A program made the translations under genes and the position numbers. A stretch of 62,347 nt of DNA, taken from contig JABDKP010000077.1 in NCBI GenBank assembly GCA_013002175.1, positions 1 to 62,347 on the forward strand. The letters are read 5' to 3'. The first letter of the stretch is position 1; every line of letters starts with the position of its first letter. The notes beneath the pieces are model-generated. The model was not told the origin of the DNA. It saw only the letters and a list, made by a program, of their open reading frames with translations, and made no database searches. The stretch is from Ilumatobacter sp. (lineage in GTDB: Bacteria > Actinomycetota > Acidimicrobiia > Acidimicrobiales > Ilumatobacteraceae). Below, one piece after another: positions 12,032 to 26,327 of the stretch.

Positions 12032-13435
12032 TCAGCGCACGACGTCGGCGTGGTGGACGCAGCCGCCGCCGCGTTCCTTGGCGACATACATCGCACGGTC
12101 GGCGACGACGATCGCCTTCTGGAGCGAGCGCGGCTCGCCGCGGGCATCCTCGCCGCCGGCGATGCCGACCGACGCGCCGATCCGGACGCGGTGCTCGCGG
12201 CAGTCGAACGGTGCGGTGATCCGTTCGACGATCCGATCGGCGAGCCGCAGCAGATCGTTCGGACGATTCGCCTGACGGTCGCACACCACGATGAACTCGT
12301 CCCCGCCGGTGCGGTACACGGCGTCGCTGTGGCGAACCGCCTCGGAGATCCTGCGGCCGACCTGGGCGATCACCTCGTCGCCCACGTCGTGTCCGAACGT
12401 GTCGTTGACCGTCTTGAAGTGGTCGAGATCGATGAAGAGCACATCGGGGTGCGCCCGCTCGAGCGAGATCCGATCGTTCAGCGACGCTCGGTTGCCGACA
12501 CCGGTCAGCGCGTCACGATGGGCGGCGTACTCGAGCTCGCGGCGGTGGTACGCCTGTTCCAGCGCGAGGTGCGCAAGCCTGACCGACTCGCCGATGTGCA
12601 CCTCCTGGTTGCCGCTCACCGGGGCCGTGGTGAAGCGCCACACGATGAACACGGCGACGACATCCCCGTCGGAGGCGAAGACGGGGCGAACCCACGCTGC
12701 GGGCAGGCCGGCCATCGCCATCTCCGCGCCGGTCCTCGCGTCGACTGCGCCCGACCCCGAGTCGATGACGTCCTGCGCGGTGCCCTGCACGAGGCACCGC
12801 CGCCACGGCGTTGCGAACGCGTTGATCAGCTCGTTCGACAGCGGCCAGTCGCCGATCAGCCGGAAGCGTTCTTCGTCGGTGGCACTGGTCGGCTCGGCAA
12901 CGAGCACCGTGCCGATGCCGTCGAGGGGTGCAGCCCGGCCGGCCGACGCGATCGCACCGAGCGTGCGGTCGAGCGGCTCATCCGAGGCAACCGCAGACAT
13001 CGCGGTTGCGAGCACGTCGCGCACGCTCTCGGCGGTGAGCGTGATGATGTACCCGTCGACACCGAGGTCGGGCGGTGTCTCGTACGCCCAGAACTGGGTG
13101 TAGTGCCGTTCGCCGGCGGCGTCGACATAGCGGATCCTGGTCGGGCCCATCAGCGCGCCGCGGAAGTGTTCGCCGTCACCGAGCATGCCGAGCGCGTCGT
13201 CGACGTCGCTCGGATCGATGAAGTCGAGCGCGGAGCGGCCGACGAAGTCTTCGTGCGGGACACCGATCAGGTCGATCAGCCGGTCATTGGCGAGCACGAC
13301 GAATCCACTGCGGTCGATCACGAACATCGCGACCGGCATCACGTTCAGCAGCAGCACGATGTCACCCGCGAAGTCCGCGAGCGTGCCACCCGCGCCGGCG
13401 GGCGCCGAACAGTCCTGCAGTGCCTTCCCGCTCAC
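12032..13435 (-). CDS. PAS-GGDEF diguanylate cyclase
   Basis: A 467-residue cytoplasmic protein. An N-terminal PAS domain (about 25-140, with VIDRSGFVVLANDRLIDLIG) is followed by a middle region without clear assignment and a C-terminal GGDEF domain. The active site is GGDEF at 377-381, and the inhibitory product-binding site RHSD at 368-371 is at the right distance, so the enzyme should make cyclic di-GMP with feedback control. FIDLDHFKTVNDTFGHDVGD is also intact. No transmembrane segment is evident. A second cyclase of similar design lies at 28941-30272. The start is GTG. Confidence 0.88.
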   Translation of the reverse strand: MSGKALQDCSAPAGAGGTLADFAGDIVLLLNVMPVAMFVIDRSGFVVLANDRLIDLIGVPHEDFVGRSALDFIDPSDVDDALGMLGDGEHFRGALMGPTRIRYVDAAGERHYTQFWAYETPPDLGVDGYIITLTAESVRDVLATAMSAVASDEPLDRTLGAIASAGRAAPLDGIGTVLVAEPTSATDEERFRLIGDWPLSNELINAFATPWRRCLVQGTAQDVIDSGSGAVDARTGAEMAMAGLPAAWVRPVFASDGDVVAVFIVWRFTTAPVSGNQEVHIGESVRLAHLALEQAYHRRELEYAAHRDALTGVGNRASLNDRISLERAHPDVLFIDLDHFKTVNDTFGHDVGDEVIAQVGRRISEAVRHSDAVYRTGGDEFIVVCDRQANRPNDLLRLADRIVERITAPFDCREHRVRIGASVGIAGGEDARGEPRSLQKAIVVADRAMYVAKERGGGCVHHADVVR

Positions 13436-13494
13436 AGGATGTCATCGGCCGGACCGACGATCACCTTGAGTCGTCGGCTACCGTTTTCCGTGAG

Positions 13495-15441
13495 ATGGCC
13501 TACCGATATCTGTGGACGCCACTGCGACTCGGGCCGGTCGAGACACGGAACCGGATCGTGTTCTCCGCGCACTTGACGAACTACGCCCGTGACGGCCTGC
13601 CCACCGATCAGCATGCCGCGTACTACGCCGATCGCGCCGCCGGTGGGACCGGGCTGATCGTCACCGAGGAGCACTCCACCCATCCGACCGACTGGCCGTA
13701 CGAGAAGCTGATCCACGGGTTCCACCGCGACGTGATCCCGGGCTACCGCGCGATCACCGAGGCCGTCCATCGCCATCGGACCCCGATCTTCGCTCAGATC
13801 AACCACAACGGGGGCCAGGCGTCGTCGATGTACTCGCGGCTTCCGGTGTGGGCGCCCTCGGCAGTGGCCGACCCATTGTTCCGCGAGGTCCCCAAAGCGG
13901 TGTCTGCAGCGGAGATCGACGAGATCGTGGCCGGCTATGCGACCGTCGCAGAACACTGCGCTGAGGGCGGCTTCGACGGCATCGAGCTGCAGTGCTCGCA
14001 CTCATCGATCGTCAGGGGATTCCTCTCCCCTGCGACGAACCGCCGCACCGACGAGTACGGAGGATCGCTGGAGCATCGCGCCCGGATCCTGCTCGACATC
14101 GTCGATGCCGTGCGCGCCGTCATCGGCAACCGGCTGGCGCTGGGGGTCAGGATCTGCGGAGACGAACTGATCGACCGGGGCACGACGATCGACGATGCCG
14201 TGCGGGTCGCCGAGATCGTCGAGCAGACCGGGCAGGTCGACTACATCAACACCTCGATCGGCGTCGCCACGGCGAGCCTGTTCATGATCGAGGCGTCGAT
14301 GCACATTCCCCCCGGATATGCGATGTTCATCCCGTCCGCGATCCGCAAGGCCGTCGACCTGCCCGTGGTGGGCGTGGGCCGTTTCAAGGACCCGCTGCAG
14401 GCCGAGCGGGCGCTCGCCGAGGGCCACTGCGACCTGGTCGGCGTCGTCCGGGGCCAGATCGCCGATGCCGACTTCGCGGCGAAGGCCCGCGCCGGCGCCA
14501 CCGACGAGACGCGGCTGTGCCTGTCGTGCAATCAGGAGTGCGTCGGTCGGATGGGTCTCAATCGGTGGCTCGGCTGCATCGAGAACCCGCGCACCGGCCG
14601 CGAGTCGCTCGGCGTCGGAGCGATCCGCCCGACGCGGCGAACCCGCAACGTGGTCGTCGTCGGGGCGGGCCCGGGTGGGCTCCAGGCCGCGATCGCCGCG
14701 CGCCGCAACGGCCATGCCGTGACGGTGTACGAACGTGAGCCCGAGGCCGGCGGGCAGGTGCGCATCGCGGCGTCGGTGCCGAACCGCGCCGAGTTCGGCG
14801 ACATGATCCGCAATCAACTCGCCGAGTGCCGTCGCCTCGGCGTGACGATCGAGTACGGCGTCGGCGTCTGGCCCGGCCTGATCGACGAGCTCCGACCCGA
14901 TCACGTGGTGGTCGCGACCGGCTCGGAACCGGCTCGGCCGTACTGGGCGCCTCCCGAGGCGGCCAACGTCGCGGACGTACGAGCGGTCCTCGACGGATCG
15001 GTCGCGCCGTTCGGGGACGTCGTCGTGATCGACGAGCTCGGCTTCCACCAGGCCACCTCGACCGCCGAGGTGCTGGCCGGCCGGGGTTGCACCGTCGAGA
15101 TCATCACGCCCGGCATGGTCGTCGGTCAGGACCTCGGGATCACGCTCGACATGGAGAACTGGTGGATCAGGGCCGGCGAGCAGGGCATCGTCCAGTCGAC
15201 CGACCTCGTGCCGGTCGGCCTCGACGGCGGGACCCTGACGCTGCTGCATCATCCGACCGGCGTCAACGAGACGCGCCGACCGGATTGGATCGTGCTCGCG
15301 GTCCCCGCCCATCCGGTCGAGTGGCTCTATCACGACCTGTGCGCCGCGGGCGTCAGCGTCGAGCGGGTCGGCGACTGCGTCGCACCGCGCCGCGCCCACA
15401 GCGCCGTCATCGAGGGCGAGCGGGTGGGGGCCGCGATCTGA
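13495..15441 (+). CDS. FMN/FAD/Fe-S old-yellow-enzyme-family oxidoreductase, mycofactocin-type
   Basis: A 648-residue flavoprotein of the 2,4-dienoyl-CoA reductase (FadH)/trimethylamine dehydrogenase layout. Residues 1-330 are an OYE barrel (NRIVFSAHLTNYARDGLP, QINHNGGQASSMY). Cys342, Cys345, Cys349 and Cys361 (CLSCNQECVGRMG...C) bind a [4Fe-4S] cluster. A second half begins with the dinucleotide motif VVVVGAGPGGLQ (386-397). From memory, the barrel sequence closely resembles the family called mycofactocin system FadH/OYE oxidoreductase 2, which fits the mycofactocin genes about 7 kb downstream. TACCGT (13479-13484) lies 10 bases before the ATG. Substrate unknown. Confidence 0.85.
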   Translation: MAYRYLWTPLRLGPVETRNRIVFSAHLTNYARDGLPTDQHAAYYADRAAGGTGLIVTEEHSTHPTDWPYEKLIHGFHRDVIPGYRAITEAVHRHRTPIFAQINHNGGQASSMYSRLPVWAPSAVADPLFREVPKAVSAAEIDEIVAGYATVAEHCAEGGFDGIELQCSHSSIVRGFLSPATNRRTDEYGGSLEHRARILLDIVDAVRAVIGNRLALGVRICGDELIDRGTTIDDAVRVAEIVEQTGQVDYINTSIGVATASLFMIEASMHIPPGYAMFIPSAIRKAVDLPVVGVGRFKDPLQAERALAEGHCDLVGVVRGQIADADFAAKARAGATDETRLCLSCNQECVGRMGLNRWLGCIENPRTGRESLGVGAIRPTRRTRNVVVVGAGPGGLQAAIAARRNGHAVTVYEREPEAGGQVRIAASVPNRAEFGDMIRNQLAECRRLGVTIEYGVGVWPGLIDELRPDHVVVATGSEPARPYWAPPEAANVADVRAVLDGSVAPFGDVVVIDELGFHQATSTAEVLAGRGCTVEIITPGMVVGQDLGITLDMENWWIRAGEQGIVQSTDLVPVGLDGGTLTLLHHPTGVNETRRPDWIVLAVPAHPVEWLYHDLCAAGVSVERVGDCVAPRRAHSAVIEGERVGAAI

Positions 15442-20548: not shown

Positions 20549-20971
20549 ATGACCAAGCAGTCGACGTCCAGCATCCTCAGCGAGATCGAGATCTTCAAGG
20601 GCTTGTCGAAGAAGGAGATCGGGCTGATCAACAAGCTGATGTCGGCGATCAGGATCAGCGCGGGCAAGGAGTTCATCAAGGAGGGTGCCTCCGGGCGCGA
20701 GGCGTTCATCATCCTCGACGGCACTGCGTCGGTCTGGAGGCACGGCAAGCTCGTCGCGTCGGTCGGACCCGGTGCAGTGATCGGCGAAATGGCAGTGATC
20801 GCCAACTCGCCCCGCACCGCAACGGTCAAGGCGGAGACCGACATGGTCGTCGAGGTGCTCAACCGCGGTGCGTTCCTGCAGTTGCTCGACGAGAGTCCGG
20901 GTCTGACGCGCAAGCTGCTGACGGCGACGATCACCCGGCTGCAGCAGCTCGAACCGACGTTGCTGTCCTGA
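20549..20971 (+). CDS. Stand-alone cyclic-nucleotide-binding domain protein
   Basis: A 140-residue protein consisting of one cNMP-binding (CRP-like) beta-roll and its flanking helices. KEFIKEGASGREAFIILDGTASVW and the phosphate-binding cassette GAVIGEMAVIANSPRTATVKAET, with Glu and Arg, are intact, so cAMP or cGMP binding is plausible. There is no DNA-binding or enzyme domain, so it must act through a partner. It ends 16 bases before the ETF alpha gene and may be the first gene of that operon. A TACGTT at 20503-20508 could be its promoter, leaving a 5' leader with GAGAGG near the start. Confidence 0.82.
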   Translation: MTKQSTSSILSEIEIFKGLSKKEIGLINKLMSAIRISAGKEFIKEGASGREAFIILDGTASVWRHGKLVASVGPGAVIGEMAVIANSPRTATVKAETDMVVEVLNRGAFLQLLDESPGLTRKLLTATITRLQQLEPTLLS

Positions 20972-20987
20972 GGCGACGCACCGTTCG

Positions 20988-21914
20988 ATGATCGCAGTGA
21001 TCCCGGTCCGCGACGGCGTGCTCCCGGCGGGATCGGACGAGGCGATCGCGGAATGTGCTGGCCGCGCTCTCGTGGTGGGGTCCGGCACGGCGACGACCGA
21101 CCTCGTCGGACGCGTCGACGACGTGGTGCTCGTGGAACTCGGACCGGTCGCGTTCGGCCGGTGGGCCGCCGCGCTCGTGGCCGACGTCGCCGAACTCACC
21201 GACGCCGACGTCATCGTGTGCCCGAACTCCCCGGACGGCCGGGACCTCGCACCCCGCCTCGCGGCTGCCCTCGGTCGGCCGCTGCTCGCCGGAGCCACCC
21301 GGATCACGGCCGCAGCCGTACAACTGGCCAGGGCCGGCGGCCGAGAGCTGCACGAAGTCGCGCCCGACGGCCCGTTCGTCGCCACCCTGCAGCCGGGGGT
21401 GCGCGACTCGGAATCGTTCCCGCCCACGCCCGTCACCCGCACGGTCGAGTCGCGTGGGGACACCGACACCGGCGATGCGACCGTTGTCGAGGTGCTGCCG
21501 CCTGATGTCCGCACGATGGACCTCGCCGAGGCCGCACGGATCGTCGGCGGCGGTGCCGGTCTGGACTCCGAGCAGCGTTTCGAGCAACTCGACGCGTTCG
21601 CCGCGGGGATCGGCGCCACGATGGGAGCAACCCGCGTGGTGACCGACCGGGCCTGGGTCCACCACGACAAGCAGATCGGCACCACCGGCGTCGTCGTCGA
21701 CCCCGACCTCTACCTCGCGTTCGGGATCAGCGGCGCGGTGCAGCACACGGCGGGGCTCGGCGACCCCGACCACGTCATCAGCGTCAACCTCGACCCGCAC
21801 TGCCCGATGATGACGATGGCCGACCTCGCGATCGTCAGCGATGCCAACGAGACGCTCGACGAACTCGTGCACCTGCTCGGGGAGACCGACTTCGACGGGG
21901 TGGCTGATGCCTGA
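20988..21914 (+). CDS. Electron transfer flavoprotein alpha subunit, mycofactocin-associated
   Basis: A 308-residue ETF alpha (FixB/EtfA) protein. The C-terminal FAD domain has VVTDRAWVHHDKQIGTTG, the LYLAFGISGAVQHTAG block and ISVNLDPHCPMMTMADLAIV. The N-terminal domain is shorter and more diverged than in housekeeping EtfA. With EtfB it should carry electrons from flavin dehydrogenases to the FixC-like protein. It overlaps the next gene by 8 bases. Its position with mftE and mftF matches the ETF pairs recorded as mycofactocin-associated. Confidence 0.88.
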   Translation: MIAVIPVRDGVLPAGSDEAIAECAGRALVVGSGTATTDLVGRVDDVVLVELGPVAFGRWAAALVADVAELTDADVIVCPNSPDGRDLAPRLAAALGRPLLAGATRITAAAVQLARAGGRELHEVAPDGPFVATLQPGVRDSESFPPTPVTRTVESRGDTDTGDATVVEVLPPDVRTMDLAEAARIVGGGAGLDSEQRFEQLDAFAAGIGATMGATRVVTDRAWVHHDKQIGTTGVVVDPDLYLAFGISGAVQHTAGLGDPDHVISVNLDPHCPMMTMADLAIVSDANETLDELVHLLGETDFDGVADA

Positions 21915-23211
21915 CCCCGACGTCGACGTCGTGGTCGTCGGTGCCGGGCCGGCCGGCGCAGCGGCCGCCACCGTGCTCGCCCGCGCCGGACACTCGGTGA
22001 TTCTGCTCGAGCGCGGCCCGTTCGCCGGGTCGAAGAACATGTACGGCGGCGTCGTGTACCCCCGCATCCTCGATCAGCTGCATCCGCAGTGGTGGGAGGA
22101 CGCGCCGGTCCAGCGATGGATCACCCGCCGCTCGACGATGGTGCTCACCGATGATCAGGCGCTCACGGTCGACTTCCGGTCCGAGCGGTGGGGACGGCCG
22201 CCGTTCAACGGTGCCACCGCCTACCGGCCGGACTGGGACCACTGGCTCGCGGCCAAGGCGCAGGCGGACGGCGCGACACTCGTCTGCTCGACAACCGCGA
22301 CCGGCCTGCTGCGCGAGGGTGGCCAGGTCGTCGGCGTCACCACCGACCGGCCCGACGGCGACCTGCGGGCGCACGTCGTGATCGCGTGCGACGGCGTCAA
22401 CAGCTTCCTCGCGAAGGAAGCGGGCATGTACGGCGAGGTCGACGCCGCGAACTACACCGTCGGCGTGAAGGAGACGATCGCCCTCCCGAAAGACGTGATC
22501 GACGCGCGCTTCGGCGTCCGGGGTCGCGAGGGCCAGGACATCGAGATCCTCGGCGGGACCGGCGGCGTCAACGGCGGTGCCTTCGTCTACACCAACCTCG
22601 ACACCCTCGCGGTCGGGTGCGTCCTCAAGCTGCCGAAGCTCAGCGCACAGGCGTTGCGCCCCGAGGAGATCATCGACGGCCTCAAGCGGCATCCCGCGAT
22701 CCGGCCGCTCGTCGAGGACGGCGAGGTCAAGGAATACTCCGCGCACGTCATCCCCGAAGCCGGCTTGTCGATGATGCCGCAGATGACCGGGGACGGCATG
22801 CTCGTCGCCGGCGACGCCGCAGCGATGTGCCTGGCCGCGGGGATCTGGCTCGAAGGCGTCAACTTCGCGATGGCAAGCGGGATGTACGCCGGCGAGGCGG
22901 CCGTCGAAGCACTGGCCGCGGGTGACGCGTCGGCCGCAGGGTTGGCCGGCTACGAGCGTCGACTGCGCGACACGTTCGTCCTGCGTGACCATCGCAAGCT
23001 GCGGCGCGCACCCGAGCTGGTGCTGTCCGACCGGGTGCAGCACCTCTACCCCGAGATGATCGCGAACACGGTCGAGCGGATGTTCCGAGTCGACAATCCG
23101 GCCCCCAAGCCCGGTCTGCGAAGGATCTTCTCCGATGAGCGGCGACGGGCCGGCGTCACGCTGCGCGACCTCGCCCGTGACGCCCTCGACGGACTGCGGA
23201 GCTTCGGATGA
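21907..23211 (+). CDS. FixC-like electron transfer flavoprotein-quinone oxidoreductase
   Basis: A 434-residue FAD protein. The N-terminal dinucleotide fold is DVVVVGAGPAGAAAATVLARAGHSVILLERG; GSKNMYGGVVYPRIL is characteristic of FixC/ETF-QO. A second FAD contact is DGMLVAGDAAAMCLAAGIWLEGVNFAM. As in FixC, the Fe-S domain is not fused but encoded by the following gene. It should accept electrons from the ETF and pass them to membrane quinone. The ATG at 21907 lies inside the end of the ETF alpha gene; its stop overlaps the ferredoxin start as ATGA. Confidence 0.88.
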   Translation: MPDPDVDVVVVGAGPAGAAAATVLARAGHSVILLERGPFAGSKNMYGGVVYPRILDQLHPQWWEDAPVQRWITRRSTMVLTDDQALTVDFRSERWGRPPFNGATAYRPDWDHWLAAKAQADGATLVCSTTATGLLREGGQVVGVTTDRPDGDLRAHVVIACDGVNSFLAKEAGMYGEVDAANYTVGVKETIALPKDVIDARFGVRGREGQDIEILGGTGGVNGGAFVYTNLDTLAVGCVLKLPKLSAQALRPEEIIDGLKRHPAIRPLVEDGEVKEYSAHVIPEAGLSMMPQMTGDGMLVAGDAAAMCLAAGIWLEGVNFAMASGMYAGEAAVEALAAGDASAAGLAGYERRLRDTFVLRDHRKLRRAPELVLSDRVQHLYPEMIANTVERMFRVDNPAPKPGLRRIFSDERRRAGVTLRDLARDALDGLRSFG

Positions 23212-23525
23212 GCACGTCGGCCGAGGCAGCGCACGAGCACTGGCCGCCGCAGTCGTTCGAGGACCTGATCGGGACCACTCGGTTCGACGTCCACGAACGC
23301 GCCCACATCACCGTCGACGACACGGTGTGCCGAGGATGCCCCAGCCGCGAATGCATCGTGGCCTGCCCCGCGAAGCTGTTCGTGCCGACGAGCGACGGGG
23401 GGATCCTGTTCAACTACGAGCAGTGCTTCGAATGCGGCACCTGCTACCTCGTCTGCAACCGGGAGGGCGCGATCACGTGGTCGTATCCGGAGGGCGGCCA
23501 CGGCGTGGTCTTCAAGCGCTCATGA
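23208..23525 (+). CDS. FixX-like ferredoxin with eight cysteines
   Basis: A 105-residue Fe-S protein, partner of the FixC-like flavoprotein whose stop it overlaps. Cysteines form two sets: 41, 44, 49 and 53 (CRGCPSRECIVAC) and 73, 76, 79 and 83 (CFECGTCYLVC). The second set is a classical CxxCxxCxxxC ferredoxin motif; the first has wider spacing. FixX-family proteins bring an Fe-S centre to ETF-quinone oxidoreductase. Two clusters could bind here. Confidence 0.85.
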   Translation: MSTSAEAAHEHWPPQSFEDLIGTTRFDVHERAHITVDDTVCRGCPSRECIVACPAKLFVPTSDGGILFNYEQCFECGTCYLVCNREGAITWSYPEGGHGVVFKRS

Positions 23526-23535
23526 GGTCGGCGCA

Positions 23536-24315
23536 GTGAAGCTGACCGTGTGCTGGAAGTGGGTCACCGTCGACGGAGGCGAACCCGACGACCGGTGGGC
23601 CGGTGTGTCCCCCGCCGACGAGGCGGCGCTCGAGACCGCGTTGACGGTCGCAGCAGCGGATGACGAGGTCGTCGTCGTGTCGGCCGGGCCACCGGGTGCC
23701 GTGGCCGCGCTCCGGAGGGCGCTCGCCGCGGGCGCGACCCGTGCGGTGCGGATCGACACCGACGGCGCGGCCAGCCGGGACGTCGCCACCGCAGTGGCCG
23801 CGATCGCCGCCGGGAGTGACTACGTGCTCTGCGGTGACTACTCCCTCGACCGCGGCACGGGCTCGGTGCCGGCGTTCCTGGCGGCGGATCTCGGTGCCGC
23901 CCAAGCACTCGGGCTGGTCTCGGTCGATGTGACCCGGCGACCCGTGCGGGTCGTGCGGCGACTCGACGGTGGTCGTCGCGAGGTGCTCGACGTCCCGGCA
24001 CCGGCCGTGCTGTCGGTGGAGGGGTCGGTCGCCCGACTGCGCCGCGCGTCATTGGCCGCATCGCTCGCCTCGAACTCCGCGCCGGTCGACGTCGTCGGCG
24101 GGCCGCCGCGCTCCGAGCAGGTCGCGGTCGTCACCGCGTACCGCCCGCGGGCACGCTCGCTGCCGGCGCCGGCCGGCGGCACGCTGACGAGGGTGCGCGA
24201 CATCCTCGACATCGGCGGCGAGCCCGTCCACAGCGAGTCGGTGACGCTCGACCCGCCGGCGGCCGCCCGCCGCATCGTCGACCAGCTCCGCGACTGGGGC
24301 CATCTCCCGGCATGA
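23536..24315 (+). CDS. Electron transfer flavoprotein beta subunit, mycofactocin-associated
   Basis: A 259-residue ETF beta (FixA/EtfB) protein. It starts MKLTVCWKWVTVDGG, has SPADEAALETAL where family members bind, DYVLCGDYSLDRGTGSVPAFLAADLGAAQ for the AMP or FAD fold, and APAVLSVEGSVARLRRASL. It is well diverged from housekeeping EtfB. It lies third after its alpha partner, separated by the FixC and FixX genes, an order also seen in fix-type clusters. It begins 10 bases after the ferredoxin stop and ends 7 bases before mftE. Confidence 0.86.
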   Translation: MKLTVCWKWVTVDGGEPDDRWAGVSPADEAALETALTVAAADDEVVVVSAGPPGAVAALRRALAAGATRAVRIDTDGAASRDVATAVAAIAAGSDYVLCGDYSLDRGTGSVPAFLAADLGAAQALGLVSVDVTRRPVRVVRRLDGGRREVLDVPAPAVLSVEGSVARLRRASLAASLASNSAPVDVVGGPPRSEQVAVVTAYRPRARSLPAPAGGTLTRVRDILDIGGEPVHSESVTLDPPAAARRIVDQLRDWGHLPA

Positions 24316-24322
24316 TGTCGGC

Positions 24323-25051
24323 ATGCGGCTGGGCGACGCGACGTGGAACGAGGTCGGAACGCTCGTCGACAACGGCATCGAAGCCGATGGCGTCCGCTCG
24401 CCGATCCTGCTGATCCCGGTCGGCTCGACCGAACAGCACGGCCCCCACCTCCCGATCGCGACCGACACGCTGGTCGCCGAGGAAATCGTCGCGCGCGCGA
24501 TCCATCGCACCGACGGCCTGATGGTCGGGCCGACGCTGGCGATCACGTCGTCCGGCGAACACGCCGGGTTCCCCGGCACGCTGTCGATCGGTTCTGACGT
24601 GATGGCCCAGGTCGTCCTGGAACTCGGTCGCAGCGCGGACTGGGCAGCCGGCGTCGTGTTCGTCAATGGCCACGGCGGCAACTACTCGGCCGTCTCGAAG
24701 GCGGTCGCCACCCTCTGCAACGAGGACCGCAGTGCGATGGCGTGGTGGCCGAAGTGGCCGAGCCGCGCCGACGGCGGGCCCGCCGACCTCCACGCCGGTC
24801 GCATCGAGACGTCGCTGTTGCTCGCGATCGACCCGGGTCTGGTCCGGCTCGAACTCGCGGTACCGGGCGCCGACGCCGACATCGCCGCGCTTCGTTCCGA
24901 CGGCGTCAAGGCGGTCAGCCCGAGCGGCGTGCTCGGCGACCCGACGGGCGCGTCGGGCCGCGAGGGCGAGCGGTTCGTCACCACGTTCGTCGACGACCTC
25001 GTCAACGAGATCGAGGCGTGGCGCCCGATCGACCCCACGCCGGCCGGCTGA
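24323..25051 (+). CDS. mftE: MftE, mycofactocin precursor peptidase (creatininase family)
   Basis: A 242-residue metal-dependent amidohydrolase. Metal ligands are Glu37, His39 and Asp48 in PVGSTEQHGPHLPIATDT, His117 in NGHGGN, and Glu162 in DLHAGRIETSL. The ending VSPSGVLGDPTGASGREGE strongly resembles mycobacterial MftE. MftE releases the modified C-terminal Val-Tyr dipeptide from the MftA peptide, yielding AHDP, the precursor of premycofactocin. It is preceded by ETF beta and followed by mftF, so these genes look like one operon. Confidence 0.9.
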   Translation: MRLGDATWNEVGTLVDNGIEADGVRSPILLIPVGSTEQHGPHLPIATDTLVAEEIVARAIHRTDGLMVGPTLAITSSGEHAGFPGTLSIGSDVMAQVVLELGRSADWAAGVVFVNGHGGNYSAVSKAVATLCNEDRSAMAWWPKWPSRADGGPADLHAGRIETSLLLAIDPGLVRLELAVPGADADIAALRSDGVKAVSPSGVLGDPTGASGREGERFVTTFVDDLVNEIEAWRPIDPTPAG

Positions 25052-25073
25052 CGCATCAGCCGGGGCCGCCCGC

Positions 25074-25079
25074 CAGACT
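25074..25079 (+). promoter_or_regulatory. -10-like CAGACT before mftF
   Basis: CAGACT ends 6 bases before a GTG at 25086. The same hexamer at the same distance precedes the VOC gene, and GAGACT-N6 precedes the SulP, metallopeptidase and GFA genes. It may give mftF its own leaderless transcript in addition to operon read-through. Confidence 0.35.
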
Positions 25080-25085
25080 GCGATG

Positions 25086-26327
25086 GTGCGGTTCGACCGG
25101 GATGGATCATGGCGGCGCTTCGGCCGCGTCGTCGTCGCCGGGTCGCCGCTGACGATCTTCCGGACGACCGCCGCAGCCGCCCCGGTGCTGGACGCAATCG
25201 AGGCCGACCGCGATGTCGCCGACTCGCCACTCGTCGAGCGTTTGGTGCATGCCGGAGCAATCCATCCCCGTCCGGGGGGCGCCGACGGGACCTCCGACCG
25301 CCGGCACGGTCGCGAGGCCGTCACGATCGTGACCCCCCAGCTCGGCGGCCGTGCAACGCTCGACGGGCGGACGACCGTCGACGACGGTTCGCACCCTCCG
25401 ATCGAAGGTGCGTCGGTCCGACTCGAACGGAACTGCGGCCCCGCGGCGGCGCGCAACGCCGGACGACTCGTCGTCACGACACCGCTGATTGCTTTCGTCG
25501 ACGCCGACGTCGAGTTGGGCGGTGAGTCCGGTTCGTGGCTCGATCGGCTCGTGCTGCACTTCGACGACCCTCGCGTCGGACTCGTCGCGCCACGCGTCAT
25601 GGGCGAACCGCGGTCGTCACTGGACCTCGGCACCGCCCCGGGCCGGATTCGTGCCGGTTCGCGGATCGGGTACGTGCCCGGTGCCGCGATCGTGGTGCGG
25701 GTCGAAGCGTTCGACGACGTCGGCGGGTTCGACGAGGGTCTGCGCTACGGCGAGGACGTCGACTTCGTCTGGCGTCTCGACCAGGCCGGCTGGCGGTGCC
25801 GGTACGAGCCCGCCTCGGCCGTGTGGCACGAGCCGCGGTCGACATGGCGCGGGCGGCTCCGGCAGCAGGTCGGGTACGGCACATCGGCGGCGCCACTTGC
25901 GCTGCGCCACCCGTCGGCCCTCACACCCGTTCGGTCGAACGGCTGGACGACCGCGGCATGGACAGCTGTGCTGATGCGCCACCCGGTGGTCGGGCTCGGC
26001 GTCGCCATCGGCAGTGCCGGCGTGCTGGTCCCGACGATGCGCGACGTGCCGGCACGCGCTGCGTTCATGCTCGCGATGACGGGTCACCTCCGCGCCGGGC
26101 AGCAGTACGCGTCGGCGGTCCGGCGGGTGTGGTGGCCCATCGTGGCAGTCGCGGCGATCGTCTCACGGCGGGCCCGGGTGGTGCTGATGGGCGCGATCGC
26201 GCTCGACGTCGCGAGCACGCCCAACGACGTTGCCTACGGCTGGGGCGTCTGGCGGGGCATCGTGCGCCACCGGACACTCCGTCCGATCGTGCCGCTGCTC
26301 TCCGCGTGGCCGAGGAGGAGATCGTGA
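25086..26327 (+). CDS. mftF: MftF-like mycofactocin glycosyltransferase, diverged
   Basis: A 413-residue GT2-type glycosyltransferase with a short N-terminal domain and hydrophobic C-terminal segments. MftF adds an oligoglucose chain to premycofactocin. Recognisable blocks are VVVAGSPLTIFRTTAAA, HAGAIHPRP, NCGPAAARNAG, FVDADVEL, SSLDLG, YVPGAAIVV, GGFDEGLRYGEDVDFVWRL and YGTSAAPLALRHP. Compared with mycobacterial MftF, the start of the nucleotide fold (VTIVTPQLGG to TVDDGS) is about nine residues shorter and lacks the usual PVRN, so donor binding may differ. GTG 25086 is favoured by the CAGACT-N6 spacing; an ATG one codon earlier is possible. Confidence 0.83.
   Translation: MRFDRDGSWRRFGRVVVAGSPLTIFRTTAAAAPVLDAIEADRDVADSPLVERLVHAGAIHPRPGGADGTSDRRHGREAVTIVTPQLGGRATLDGRTTVDDGSHPPIEGASVRLERNCGPAAARNAGRLVVTTPLIAFVDADVELGGESGSWLDRLVLHFDDPRVGLVAPRVMGEPRSSLDLGTAPGRIRAGSRIGYVPGAAIVVRVEAFDDVGGFDEGLRYGEDVDFVWRLDQAGWRCRYEPASAVWHEPRSTWRGRLRQQVGYGTSAAPLALRHPSALTPVRSNGWTTAAWTAVLMRHPVVGLGVAIGSAGVLVPTMRDVPARAAFMLAMTGHLRAGQQYASAVRRVWWPIVAVAAIVSRRARVVLMGAIALDVASTPNDVAYGWGVWRGIVRHRTLRPIVPLLSAWPRRRS

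What the first reader, a model, noticed from the sequence alone, without database searches (positions are those of the whole stretch)
20549..26327. Split mycofactocin locus fused to an ETF-FixC-FixX electron-transfer module
Seen: ETF alpha, FixC-like flavoprotein, 8-Cys FixX-like ferredoxin, ETF beta, MftE and MftF lie in one direction with overlaps or gaps of 7-34 bases. Known: MftE and MftF are late mycofactocin biosynthesis enzymes, usually next to mftA-D; ETF subunits have been recorded beside mycofactocin genes. Unusual: mftA, mftB, mftC and mftD are absent and the gaps are too small to hide mftA. Inference: in this lineage the cofactor's re-oxidation route (mycofactocinol to ETF to FixCX to quinone) is physically tied to the last maturation steps. 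The cNMP-binding protein at the front could add cyclic-nucleotide control.
Basis: partly seen in the sequence, partly recalled or inferred. Interest (0 to 1): 0.8.

Follow-up and report, generated by a model that had tools for sequence, protein, structure and literature searches.

The report
Electron-transfer module replacing mycofactocin gene mftD
A set of electron-carrying enzymes sits among the genes for the bacterial redox cofactor mycofactocin and is found where one usual biosynthesis gene, mftD, is missing, which suggests that these bacteria finish the cofactor by a different, respiration-linked reaction.

Summary
The genes are as described; the meaning differs. mftA, mftB and mftC lie on another contig of the same draft genome; no mftD reaches its cut-off. 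Among 67 mftC-bearing genomes, all 22 without mftD carry OYE2, against 1 of 45 with mftD. Ten mftC plasmids split 6 to 4 without overlap. In a complete same-genus genome mftD stands where the window has etfA-fixC-fixX-etfB. The mftC tree needs 14 switches, 6 forced by starred branches. Best reading: the module replaces MftD; TMADH/histamine-dehydrogenase-like flavoenzymes deaminate AHDP and pass electrons through ETF and FixCX to quinone. Replacement is well supported, the chemistry inferred. Mycofactocinol re-oxidation is less likely. NCBIfam already names these families mycofactocin-associated, and a 2024 paper noted mftD missing with OYE2 present in Saccharopolyspora; exclusivity and mechanism were in no passage seen here.

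The parts
13420..15441 (+). OYE2: mycofactocin system FadH/OYE family oxidoreductase 2 (FMN, 4Fe-4S, one dinucleotide fold); translated from 13489 in the searches
   Evidence: TIGR03997 948.7 bits, cut-off 793.15; PF00724; 4Fe-4S Cys 344/347/351/363 invariant in alignments of 15 and 26 rows
20549..20971 (+). small cyclic-nucleotide-binding protein; resident of the locus in both mftD and module states, probably not part of the module
   Evidence: PF00027 60.1 bits; syntenic 55% homologue next to mftD in G225
20988..21914 (+). mycofactocin-associated ETF alpha
   Evidence: NF038209 361.9 bits, cut-off 240
21907..23211 (+). FixC-like FAD protein, ETF:quinone oxidoreductase type
   Evidence: PRK10015 336.1 bits, below its cut-off of 466; EtfABCX FixC 7koe_C 251.5 bits
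23208..23525 (+). FixX-like 8-Cys ferredoxin
   Evidence: PRK15449 FixX 48.5 bits, below its cut-off of 166; PF13187 32.1 bits
23536..24315 (+). mycofactocin-associated ETF beta (GTG start)
   Evidence: TIGR04503 208.7 bits, cut-off 200
24323..25051 (+). MftE peptidase
   Evidence: TIGR03964 235.9 bits, cut-off 172
25083..26327 (+). MftF glycosyltransferase, shorter than relatives
   Evidence: TIGR03965 267 bits, cut-off 280; alignment with relatives

Best explanation
The ETF-FixC-FixX genes, together with OYE1 (on the mftABC contig C106) and OYE2 (window 13420-15441), form a module that takes the place of MftD, the premycofactocin synthase. MftA-B-C and MftE make AHDP as usual. One or both OYE proteins, of the FMN/4Fe-4S family that includes trimethylamine and histamine dehydrogenase, oxidatively deaminate AHDP (or its glycosylated form) to premycofactocin. 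The electrons pass over the 4Fe-4S cluster to the dedicated ETF, then to FixC/FixX, then to the quinone pool, so O2 need not be the direct acceptor. MftF glycosylates. Shown: genes, genome-wide exclusivity with mftD, in-place exchange in one genus, repeated switching on a tree. Inferred: the reaction, which OYE does it, and the electron path.
For: (1) Of 67 mftC-bearing Actinomycetota genomes, 22 of 22 without mftD have OYE2 and 1 of 45 with mftD does; Fisher p 8.5e-17, not corrected for kinship. The exception, G069, has a second mftABC cluster without mftD, whose mftC groups with module-type mftCs (support 93). (2) mftC tree: 14 changes of state, 6 forced by starred branches. (3) Of 72,556 plasmids, 10 match mftC (E up to 1e-80): 4 also match mftD, 6 OYE2, none both or neither. 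(4) 0 of 50 OYE2-bearing genomes searched have mftD over cut-off (at least 4 of the 50 are already in the 67). (5) In the same-genus complete genome G225, mftD (opposite strand) lies between cNMP and mftE, where the window has etfA-fixC-fixX-etfB. (6) In contiguous operons the module fills mftD's slot between mftC and mftE/F, with overlapping or nearly touching genes. (7) 7 of 17 mftD-less mftC genomes of the order have no FMN hydroxy-acid-dehydrogenase match better than E 1e-10, so no LldD stand-in there. (8) OYE2 keeps the four 4Fe-4S cysteines and the first GxGxxG but has no GxGxx[GA] in the 14 residues examined of the second fold, 0 of 15 and 0 of 26 rows; there it aligns with histamine dehydrogenase and TMADH. 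(9) PDB 1o94 holds homologues of OYE2 and of both ETF subunits in one entry. (10) mftD deletion in M. smegmatis abolishes PMFT and mycofactocin (PMC7491314, passages), yet S. erythraea is reported to make methylated mycofactocin while Saccharopolyspora clusters lack mftD and hold TIGR03997 (both as stated in PMC11162802, passages; the primary paper is not held).
Against: No biochemistry. By sequence score OYE2 is nearer to 2,4-dienoyl-CoA reductase (241.6 bits) and NCR (232) than to histamine dehydrogenase (181.1) or TMADH (162.8); the flavin-linking Cys of TMADH is Leu in all rows of both alignments. FixC is closest to the EtfABCX complex, so the module might draw on NADH. mftD-bearing mftC genomes do hold related OYE proteins below the OYE2 cut-off (G056, G057, G098, G107 up to 605 bits; lowest hit counted as OYE2: 677), and the tool scored only the best first-look candidates (9 and 4 a genome for OYE2, up to 14 and 6 for mftD). 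10 of the 17 mftD-less mftC genomes of the order, the window's included, do have an LldD-like protein or piece of one. etfA is within 400 bases of OYE2 in only 25 of 63 named loci that hold both. G103 has the module but no mftC found (74% complete; its contig ends just past OYE1). A correlated second function cannot be excluded from distribution alone.
Confidence: 0.72

Rival explanations
1. One reading: the ETF-FixCX module re-oxidises mycofactocinol and feeds quinone, as MftG does in mycobacteria.
For: FixC is of the ETF:quinone oxidoreductase type. PMFT/PMFTH2 midpoint -255 mV would allow electrons to reach menaquinone, and about 25% of mftC genomes lack MftG, with the substitute called an open question (PMC11778925, passages and section 5).
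Against: MftG is over cut-off in 0 of 118 genomes of the order, yet of the 41 mftC genomes there only the 17 without mftD and G069 carry OYE2; the mftD-bearing, MftG-less others do without it. It leaves 22 genomes with no known AHDP deaminase. Only TIGR03970 was searched for MftG; the two further MftG models are genus-specific (Gordonia, Dietzia) according to PMC11778925.
Confidence: 0.13
2. The module makes a chemically different cofactor: AHDP is modified by the OYE pair without becoming the usual keto-amide.
For: Exclusivity with mftD alone would also fit two alternative end products; OYE1 and OYE2 are related to ene- and dienoyl reductases.
Against: mftA, B, C, E and F occur with both states, and MftA ends in the searched pattern GxCG[VIM]Y in both (GMCGVY in the window genome). 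S. erythraea is reported to make methylated mycofactocin although Saccharopolyspora clusters lack mftD (PMC11162802, passages). The state switches between close relatives.
Confidence: 0.08
3. The module is a FixABCX-like bifurcating complex that supplies low-potential electrons, for instance to the radical SAM enzyme MftC.
For: The FixC is closest to T. maritima EtfABCX (7koe; organism recalled), and a FixX-like ferredoxin is present.
Against: ETF beta has LDRGTGSVPAFLA where the solved ETF 4kpu has AIDGDTAQVGPEIA, and similar forms run through the 12 rows aligned (that 4kpu bifurcates and that this motif marks it is recalled). It does not explain exclusivity with mftD, since both kinds have MftC.
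Confidence: 0.05
4. mftD is merely missing through draft assembly or sampling, and the linkage is incidental.
For: Window genome 89.2% complete in 191 contigs.
Against: Complementarity in two overlapping genome samples and a plasmid set; G102, 99% complete, lacks mftD too.
Confidence: 0.02

Closest known systems
Canonical mycofactocin cluster mftABCDEF (TIGR03969/03967/03962/03966/03964/03965)
   Same: mftA, B, C, E and F present, precursor ends GMCGVY
   Different: no mftD over cut-off; OYE1, OYE2, etfA, fixC, fixX, etfB instead; in the window genome split over two contigs
NCBIfam mycofactocin system FadH/OYE oxidoreductases 1 and 2 (TIGR03996, TIGR03997) and mycofactocin-associated ETF (NF038209, TIGR04503)
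   Same: window and C106 proteins score over all four cut-offs
   Different: the family names give no role; the mutual exclusion with mftD was found here and in no passage seen
mftD-less mycofactocin-like clusters with TIGR03997 in Saccharopolyspora (BGCFlow, PMC11162802)
   Same: lack TIGR03966, hold TIGR03997
   Different: passages seen do not mention ETF, FixCX, exclusivity or a replacing function; one genus
Trimethylamine / histamine dehydrogenase with ETF (PDB 1o94, 3k30)
   Same: family, 4Fe-4S cysteines, no GxGxxG in the second fold, ETF encoded in the same module
   Different: no covalent-flavin Cys; two OYE proteins; substrate unknown; OYE2 scores higher with dienoyl-CoA reductase
EtfABCX / FixABCX (PDB 7koe)
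   Same: ETF alpha, beta, FixC, FixX gene set
   Different: ETF beta lacks the DGDTAQVGP stretch; tied to mycofactocin genes
MftG (TIGR03970)
   Different: unrelated GMC enzyme; 0 of 118 genomes of the order reach its cut-off

Membership tests
Mycofactocin biosynthesis system | mftA, mftB and mftC in the genome | tested here: met
   C106: MftA 51.2 bits (cut-off 25), MftB 98.7 (33), MftC 618 (265)
Mycofactocin biosynthesis system | mftE | tested here: met
   235.9 bits, cut-off 172
Mycofactocin biosynthesis system | mftF | tested here: inconclusive
   267 bits, cut-off 280; stretches VDDGS, DADV, GEDVDFVWR kept in the alignment
Mycofactocin biosynthesis system | mftD | tested here: not met
   best hit 274.7 bits, cut-off 470.85; it scores higher as L-lactate dehydrogenase (373.2)
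MftD family (replaced function) | module and mftD do not co-occur | tested here: met
   44 mftD only, 22 OYE2 only, 1 both, 0 neither of 67 (G077 counted as mftD-bearing from a fragment)
TMADH/histamine dehydrogenase-type amine dehydrogenase | FMN barrel plus 4Fe-4S cysteines | tested here: met
   PF00724; 4 Cys in 15 of 15 and 26 of 26 rows, the window and some genomes being in both alignments
TMADH/histamine dehydrogenase-type amine dehydrogenase | second dinucleotide fold without NADPH motif | tested here: met
   0 of 15 and 0 of 26 rows have GxGxx[GA] in the 14 residues examined; OYE2 only
TMADH/histamine dehydrogenase-type amine dehydrogenase | 6-S-cysteinyl FMN (Cys30 in TMADH, recalled) | tested here: not met
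   Leu in all rows; so not filed as a member, only as working like one
TMADH/histamine dehydrogenase-type amine dehydrogenase | amine oxidation with ETF as acceptor | not testable with these tools
   needs purified proteins
FixABCX bifurcating complex | FixC and FixX homologues | tested here: met
   both below NCBIfam cut-offs
FixABCX bifurcating complex | bifurcating ETF beta motif | tested here: not met
   DRGTGSVP in place of DGDTAQVGP; meaning of the motif recalled

The most novel reading that the evidence does not exclude
A portable, O2-independent premycofactocin synthase: a pair of amine-dehydrogenase-like OYE flavoproteins wired through a private ETF and FixCX to quinone has exchanged places with the FMN enzyme MftD many times, even in place within one genus, so that the last redox step of making a redox cofactor becomes a respiratory reaction.
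Probability: 0.58. Interest if true: 0.82.

Novelty: new variant of a known kind. Interest (0 to 1): 0.74.

Why it matters
It offers an answer to how organisms without mftD can make mycofactocin, gives a testable role to four NCBIfam families named only by association, and would be a clear case of repeated non-orthologous replacement in cofactor biosynthesis. Cluster finders that require mftD may misclassify such loci; PMC11162802 gives this as the likely cause for antiSMASH 6.1 (passages). Plasmid operons in Streptomyces make it tractable.

Tried and rejected
LldD on contig C87 as a hidden MftD: scores 373 as L-lactate dehydrogenase against 275 as MftD, and 7 of 17 mftD-less mftC genomes of the order lack any such match better than E 1e-10; in the other 10 such a protein or piece exists and is not excluded by that test. 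The creatininase on C145 as a second MftE: 136-137 bits, cut-off 172. MftG substitute as the driver: 0 of 118. cNMP as part of the module: rejected. The profile search of the PDB with alignment A1 at 1e-100 and the OYE1 search with L007 at 1e-40 gave nothing at those limits; repeated at weaker limits with single sequences, for OYE1 with the L055 copy. A structure of OYE2 could not be had: the queue was full at all six tries, so no fold search was made. OYE1, mftF and mftA/mftB were not searched genome-wide (genome search cap reached); mftA, mftB and mftF of relatives were looked for only in the fetched stretches.

Rows judged by hand: G077 is counted as mftD-bearing from a 115-residue fragment (175 bits) in a 124-aa open frame; if not, it is one mftC genome with neither. 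OYE2 in G031, G063 and G082 is below the cut-off (787, 677, 764 bits; the first two partial) but counted, the next hit being 605 bits. In the mftC tree G017 and G344 are partial rows, and G069's second mftC was left out of the state count.
Full report
What is there. ETF alpha, ETF beta and MftE pass NCBIfam cut-offs of mycofactocin-associated families (NF038209, TIGR04503, TIGR03964); MftF is slightly under its cut-off. Five genes upstream of etfA, at 13420-15441, lies OYE2 (TIGR03997, 948.7 bits against a cut-off of 793.15). Between them are a GH3 glycosidase, an alpha-amylase family protein, a VTT-domain (DedA-type) membrane protein and the cNMP protein, all +.

The rest of the genome. The window is contig C131 of a draft genome of 3.33 Mb, 89.2% complete, in 191 contigs. 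mftC is on C106 at 618 bits; directly upstream are mftB (98.7 bits, cut-off 33) and an mftA ending ISIDGMCGVY (51.2 bits, cut-off 25). On the same contig and strand, about 3.3 kb past mftC, is OYE1 (TIGR03996, 730.9 bits, cut-off 627.9). No mftD reaches its cut-off; the best candidate, on C87, scores 373 bits as L-lactate dehydrogenase and 275 as MftD (cut-off 470.85). The locus is therefore split, and of mftA-D only mftD is missing. A split is natural in this genus: in the complete same-genus genome G225 mftC and mftD are about 161 kb apart. G225 is 4,830,181 bp long, the length given for Ilumatobacter coccineum YM16-304 (PMC3910706, passages); the identification rests on that length.

The exclusion rule. 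In 118 genomes of the order, mftC is over cut-off in 41, mftD in 23 (24 with a fragment in G077), mft_etfA in 17, and OYE2 in 16 (19 at 677 bits or more). Of the 17 mftC genomes without mftD, 17 have OYE2 and 15 have mft_etfA over cut-off; in G082 a divergent etfA-fixC-fixX set is present, and in G117 etfA, fixC and fixX lie beside OYE2. In 296 genomes of the phylum, mftC is over cut-off in 36 and mftD in 28; OYE2 is over cut-off in 8, which are exactly the 8 without mftD. The samples overlap. Merged, 67 mftC genomes: 44 mftD only, 22 OYE2 only, 1 both (G069), 0 neither (Fisher p 8.5e-17, which ignores kinship). Limits: related OYE proteins below the cut-off (up to 605 bits) occur in mftD-bearing genomes such as G056, G057, G098 and G107, and only the best first-look candidates of each genome were scored. 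G103 has OYE2 without a found mftC; it is 74% complete and its contig ends just past OYE1. Among 72,556 plasmids, 10 match mftC, 4 of them mftD and 6 OYE2, none both.

Repeated and in-place replacement. On a tree of 68 mftC proteins from 67 genomes the state changes at least 14 times, 6 of them forced by starred branches; sister pairs of opposite state include G389/G053, G094/G052 and G017/G107 on starred branches, and the window genome with G225 at support 83 (quick method, some long branches flagged). The state is also clustered on the tree (3 of 500 shuffles as low for the module rows), so inheritance plays a part. G069 carries two mft clusters, one with mftD and one without, plus a separate OYE1-OYE2-etfA-fixC-fixX-etfB set; its mftD-less mftC groups with module-type mftCs at support 93. 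Against G225 the flanks of the window are conserved (GGDEF 47%, glycosidase 64%, amylase 63%, cNMP 55%, mftE 69%, DUF4395 65% identity), and between cNMP and mftE the window has etfA-fixC-fixX-etfB where G225 has mftD on the opposite strand. No homologue of OYE2, the DedA-type gene or mftF appeared in that 20-kb stretch of G225.

Operon form. In part of the relatives the genes are contiguous: mftA-mftB-mftC-OYE1-OYE2-etfA-fixC-fixX-etfB, often followed by mftE and mftF. All nine are present in 16 of the 80 named loci, many of which are short contigs; etfA is within 400 bases of OYE2 in 25 of the 63 loci that hold both. In others, as in the window, OYE2 stands apart. Of the 6 Streptomyces plasmids, 4 regions were viewed: each shows mftA-mftB-mftC, the two OYE positions, ETF alpha, an FAD oxidoreductase, a 4Fe-4S protein, ETF beta and mftE, mostly with overlapping or touching genes and no mftD; two lie next to a type I polyketide synthase. 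In those four, OYE1 is so named in two, OYE2 in three (in the SAT1 plasmid that stretch has no listed gene although tblastn matches it in two pieces), and mftF is not listed in the NBC_00564 region. In the canonical order (recalled) mftD stands between mftC and mftE; here the module does.

Mechanism. MftD oxidatively deaminates AHDP to premycofactocin, and an mftD deletion in M. smegmatis accumulates AHDP-n and makes no premycofactocin (PMC7491314, passages). A genome without MftD needs another AHDP deaminase or makes no cofactor. PMC11162802 (passages) reports Saccharopolyspora clusters without mftD but with TIGR03997 of unknown function, and cites mycofactocin production by S. erythraea; I could not read the cited paper. 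OYE2 belongs to the family of 2,4-dienoyl-CoA reductase, NCR, histamine dehydrogenase and TMADH. It keeps the 4Fe-4S cysteines and the first GxGxxG but has D[ED][LIV]GFH[QH] and no GxGxx[GA] where a NAD(P)H fold would be expected, and there it aligns with histamine dehydrogenase and TMADH (that dienoyl-CoA reductase binds NADPH there is recalled). That TMADH passes electrons to an ETF is recalled; PDB 1o94 lists both partners and is found by OYE2, ETF alpha and ETF beta searches alike. FixC matches the EtfABCX FixC (7koe), named there an ETF-quinone oxidoreductase. Hence the proposed path AHDP, OYE1/OYE2, ETF, FixCX, quinone. Replacement of MftD is strongly supported; the path is inference.

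Rivals. Re-oxidation of mycofactocinol does not explain why the module follows absence of mftD, or why mftD-bearing, MftG-less genomes do without it. A different end product is possible but sits badly with the S. erythraea report. Bifurcation is possible; the ETF beta motif speaks against it.

Novelty. The association of ETF and OYE families with mycofactocin is known to NCBIfam, and the MftD family was noted as not universal in PMC3023750 (passages). A search for papers with both mycofactocin and 'electron transfer flavoprotein' gave 0; TIGR03997 appears in PMC11162802 and the phrase 'mycofactocin system FadH' in PMC7913881 (listing only). None of the passages read states the exclusion rule or the replacement. 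Subscription papers, among them the 2019 review PMC6449177, were not available, so prior mention cannot be excluded.

Noticed in passing
window 25083-26327: MftF is shorter than in relatives, with gaps in the first part of the glycosyltransferase domain and near RSSLDLG; the stretches VDDGS, DADV and GEDVDFVWR remain.
   Followed up: partly
L086, L087, L058 (genome G069): One genome holds two mycofactocin clusters, one with mftD and one without, and a separate OYE-ETF-FixCX set: a natural double system.
   Followed up: partly
L220-L223 (Streptomyces plasmids): mftD-less mycofactocin operons on linear plasmids; in L220 and L223 beside type I polyketide synthase genes and with a mycofactocin-coupled SDR.
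   Followed up: partly
   Followed up: no
L060, L061, L117 (genome G102): In a same-family genome the system lies on three contigs: mftABC with an OYE1-like gene, ETF-FixCX with mftE and mftF, and OYE2.
   Followed up: partly
L132, L135, L157, L170, L172, L183: Records titled Bifidobacterium breve encode OYE2 76-81% identical to the window's; the titles look like misnamed draft genomes.
   Followed up: no
L009 702-1481 (contig C145): A second MftE-like creatininase, 137 bits against a cut-off of 172.
   Followed up: no
order sample: No genome of 118 reaches the MftG cut-off although 41 have mftC, so how mycofactocinol is re-oxidised in this order is open.
   Followed up: no
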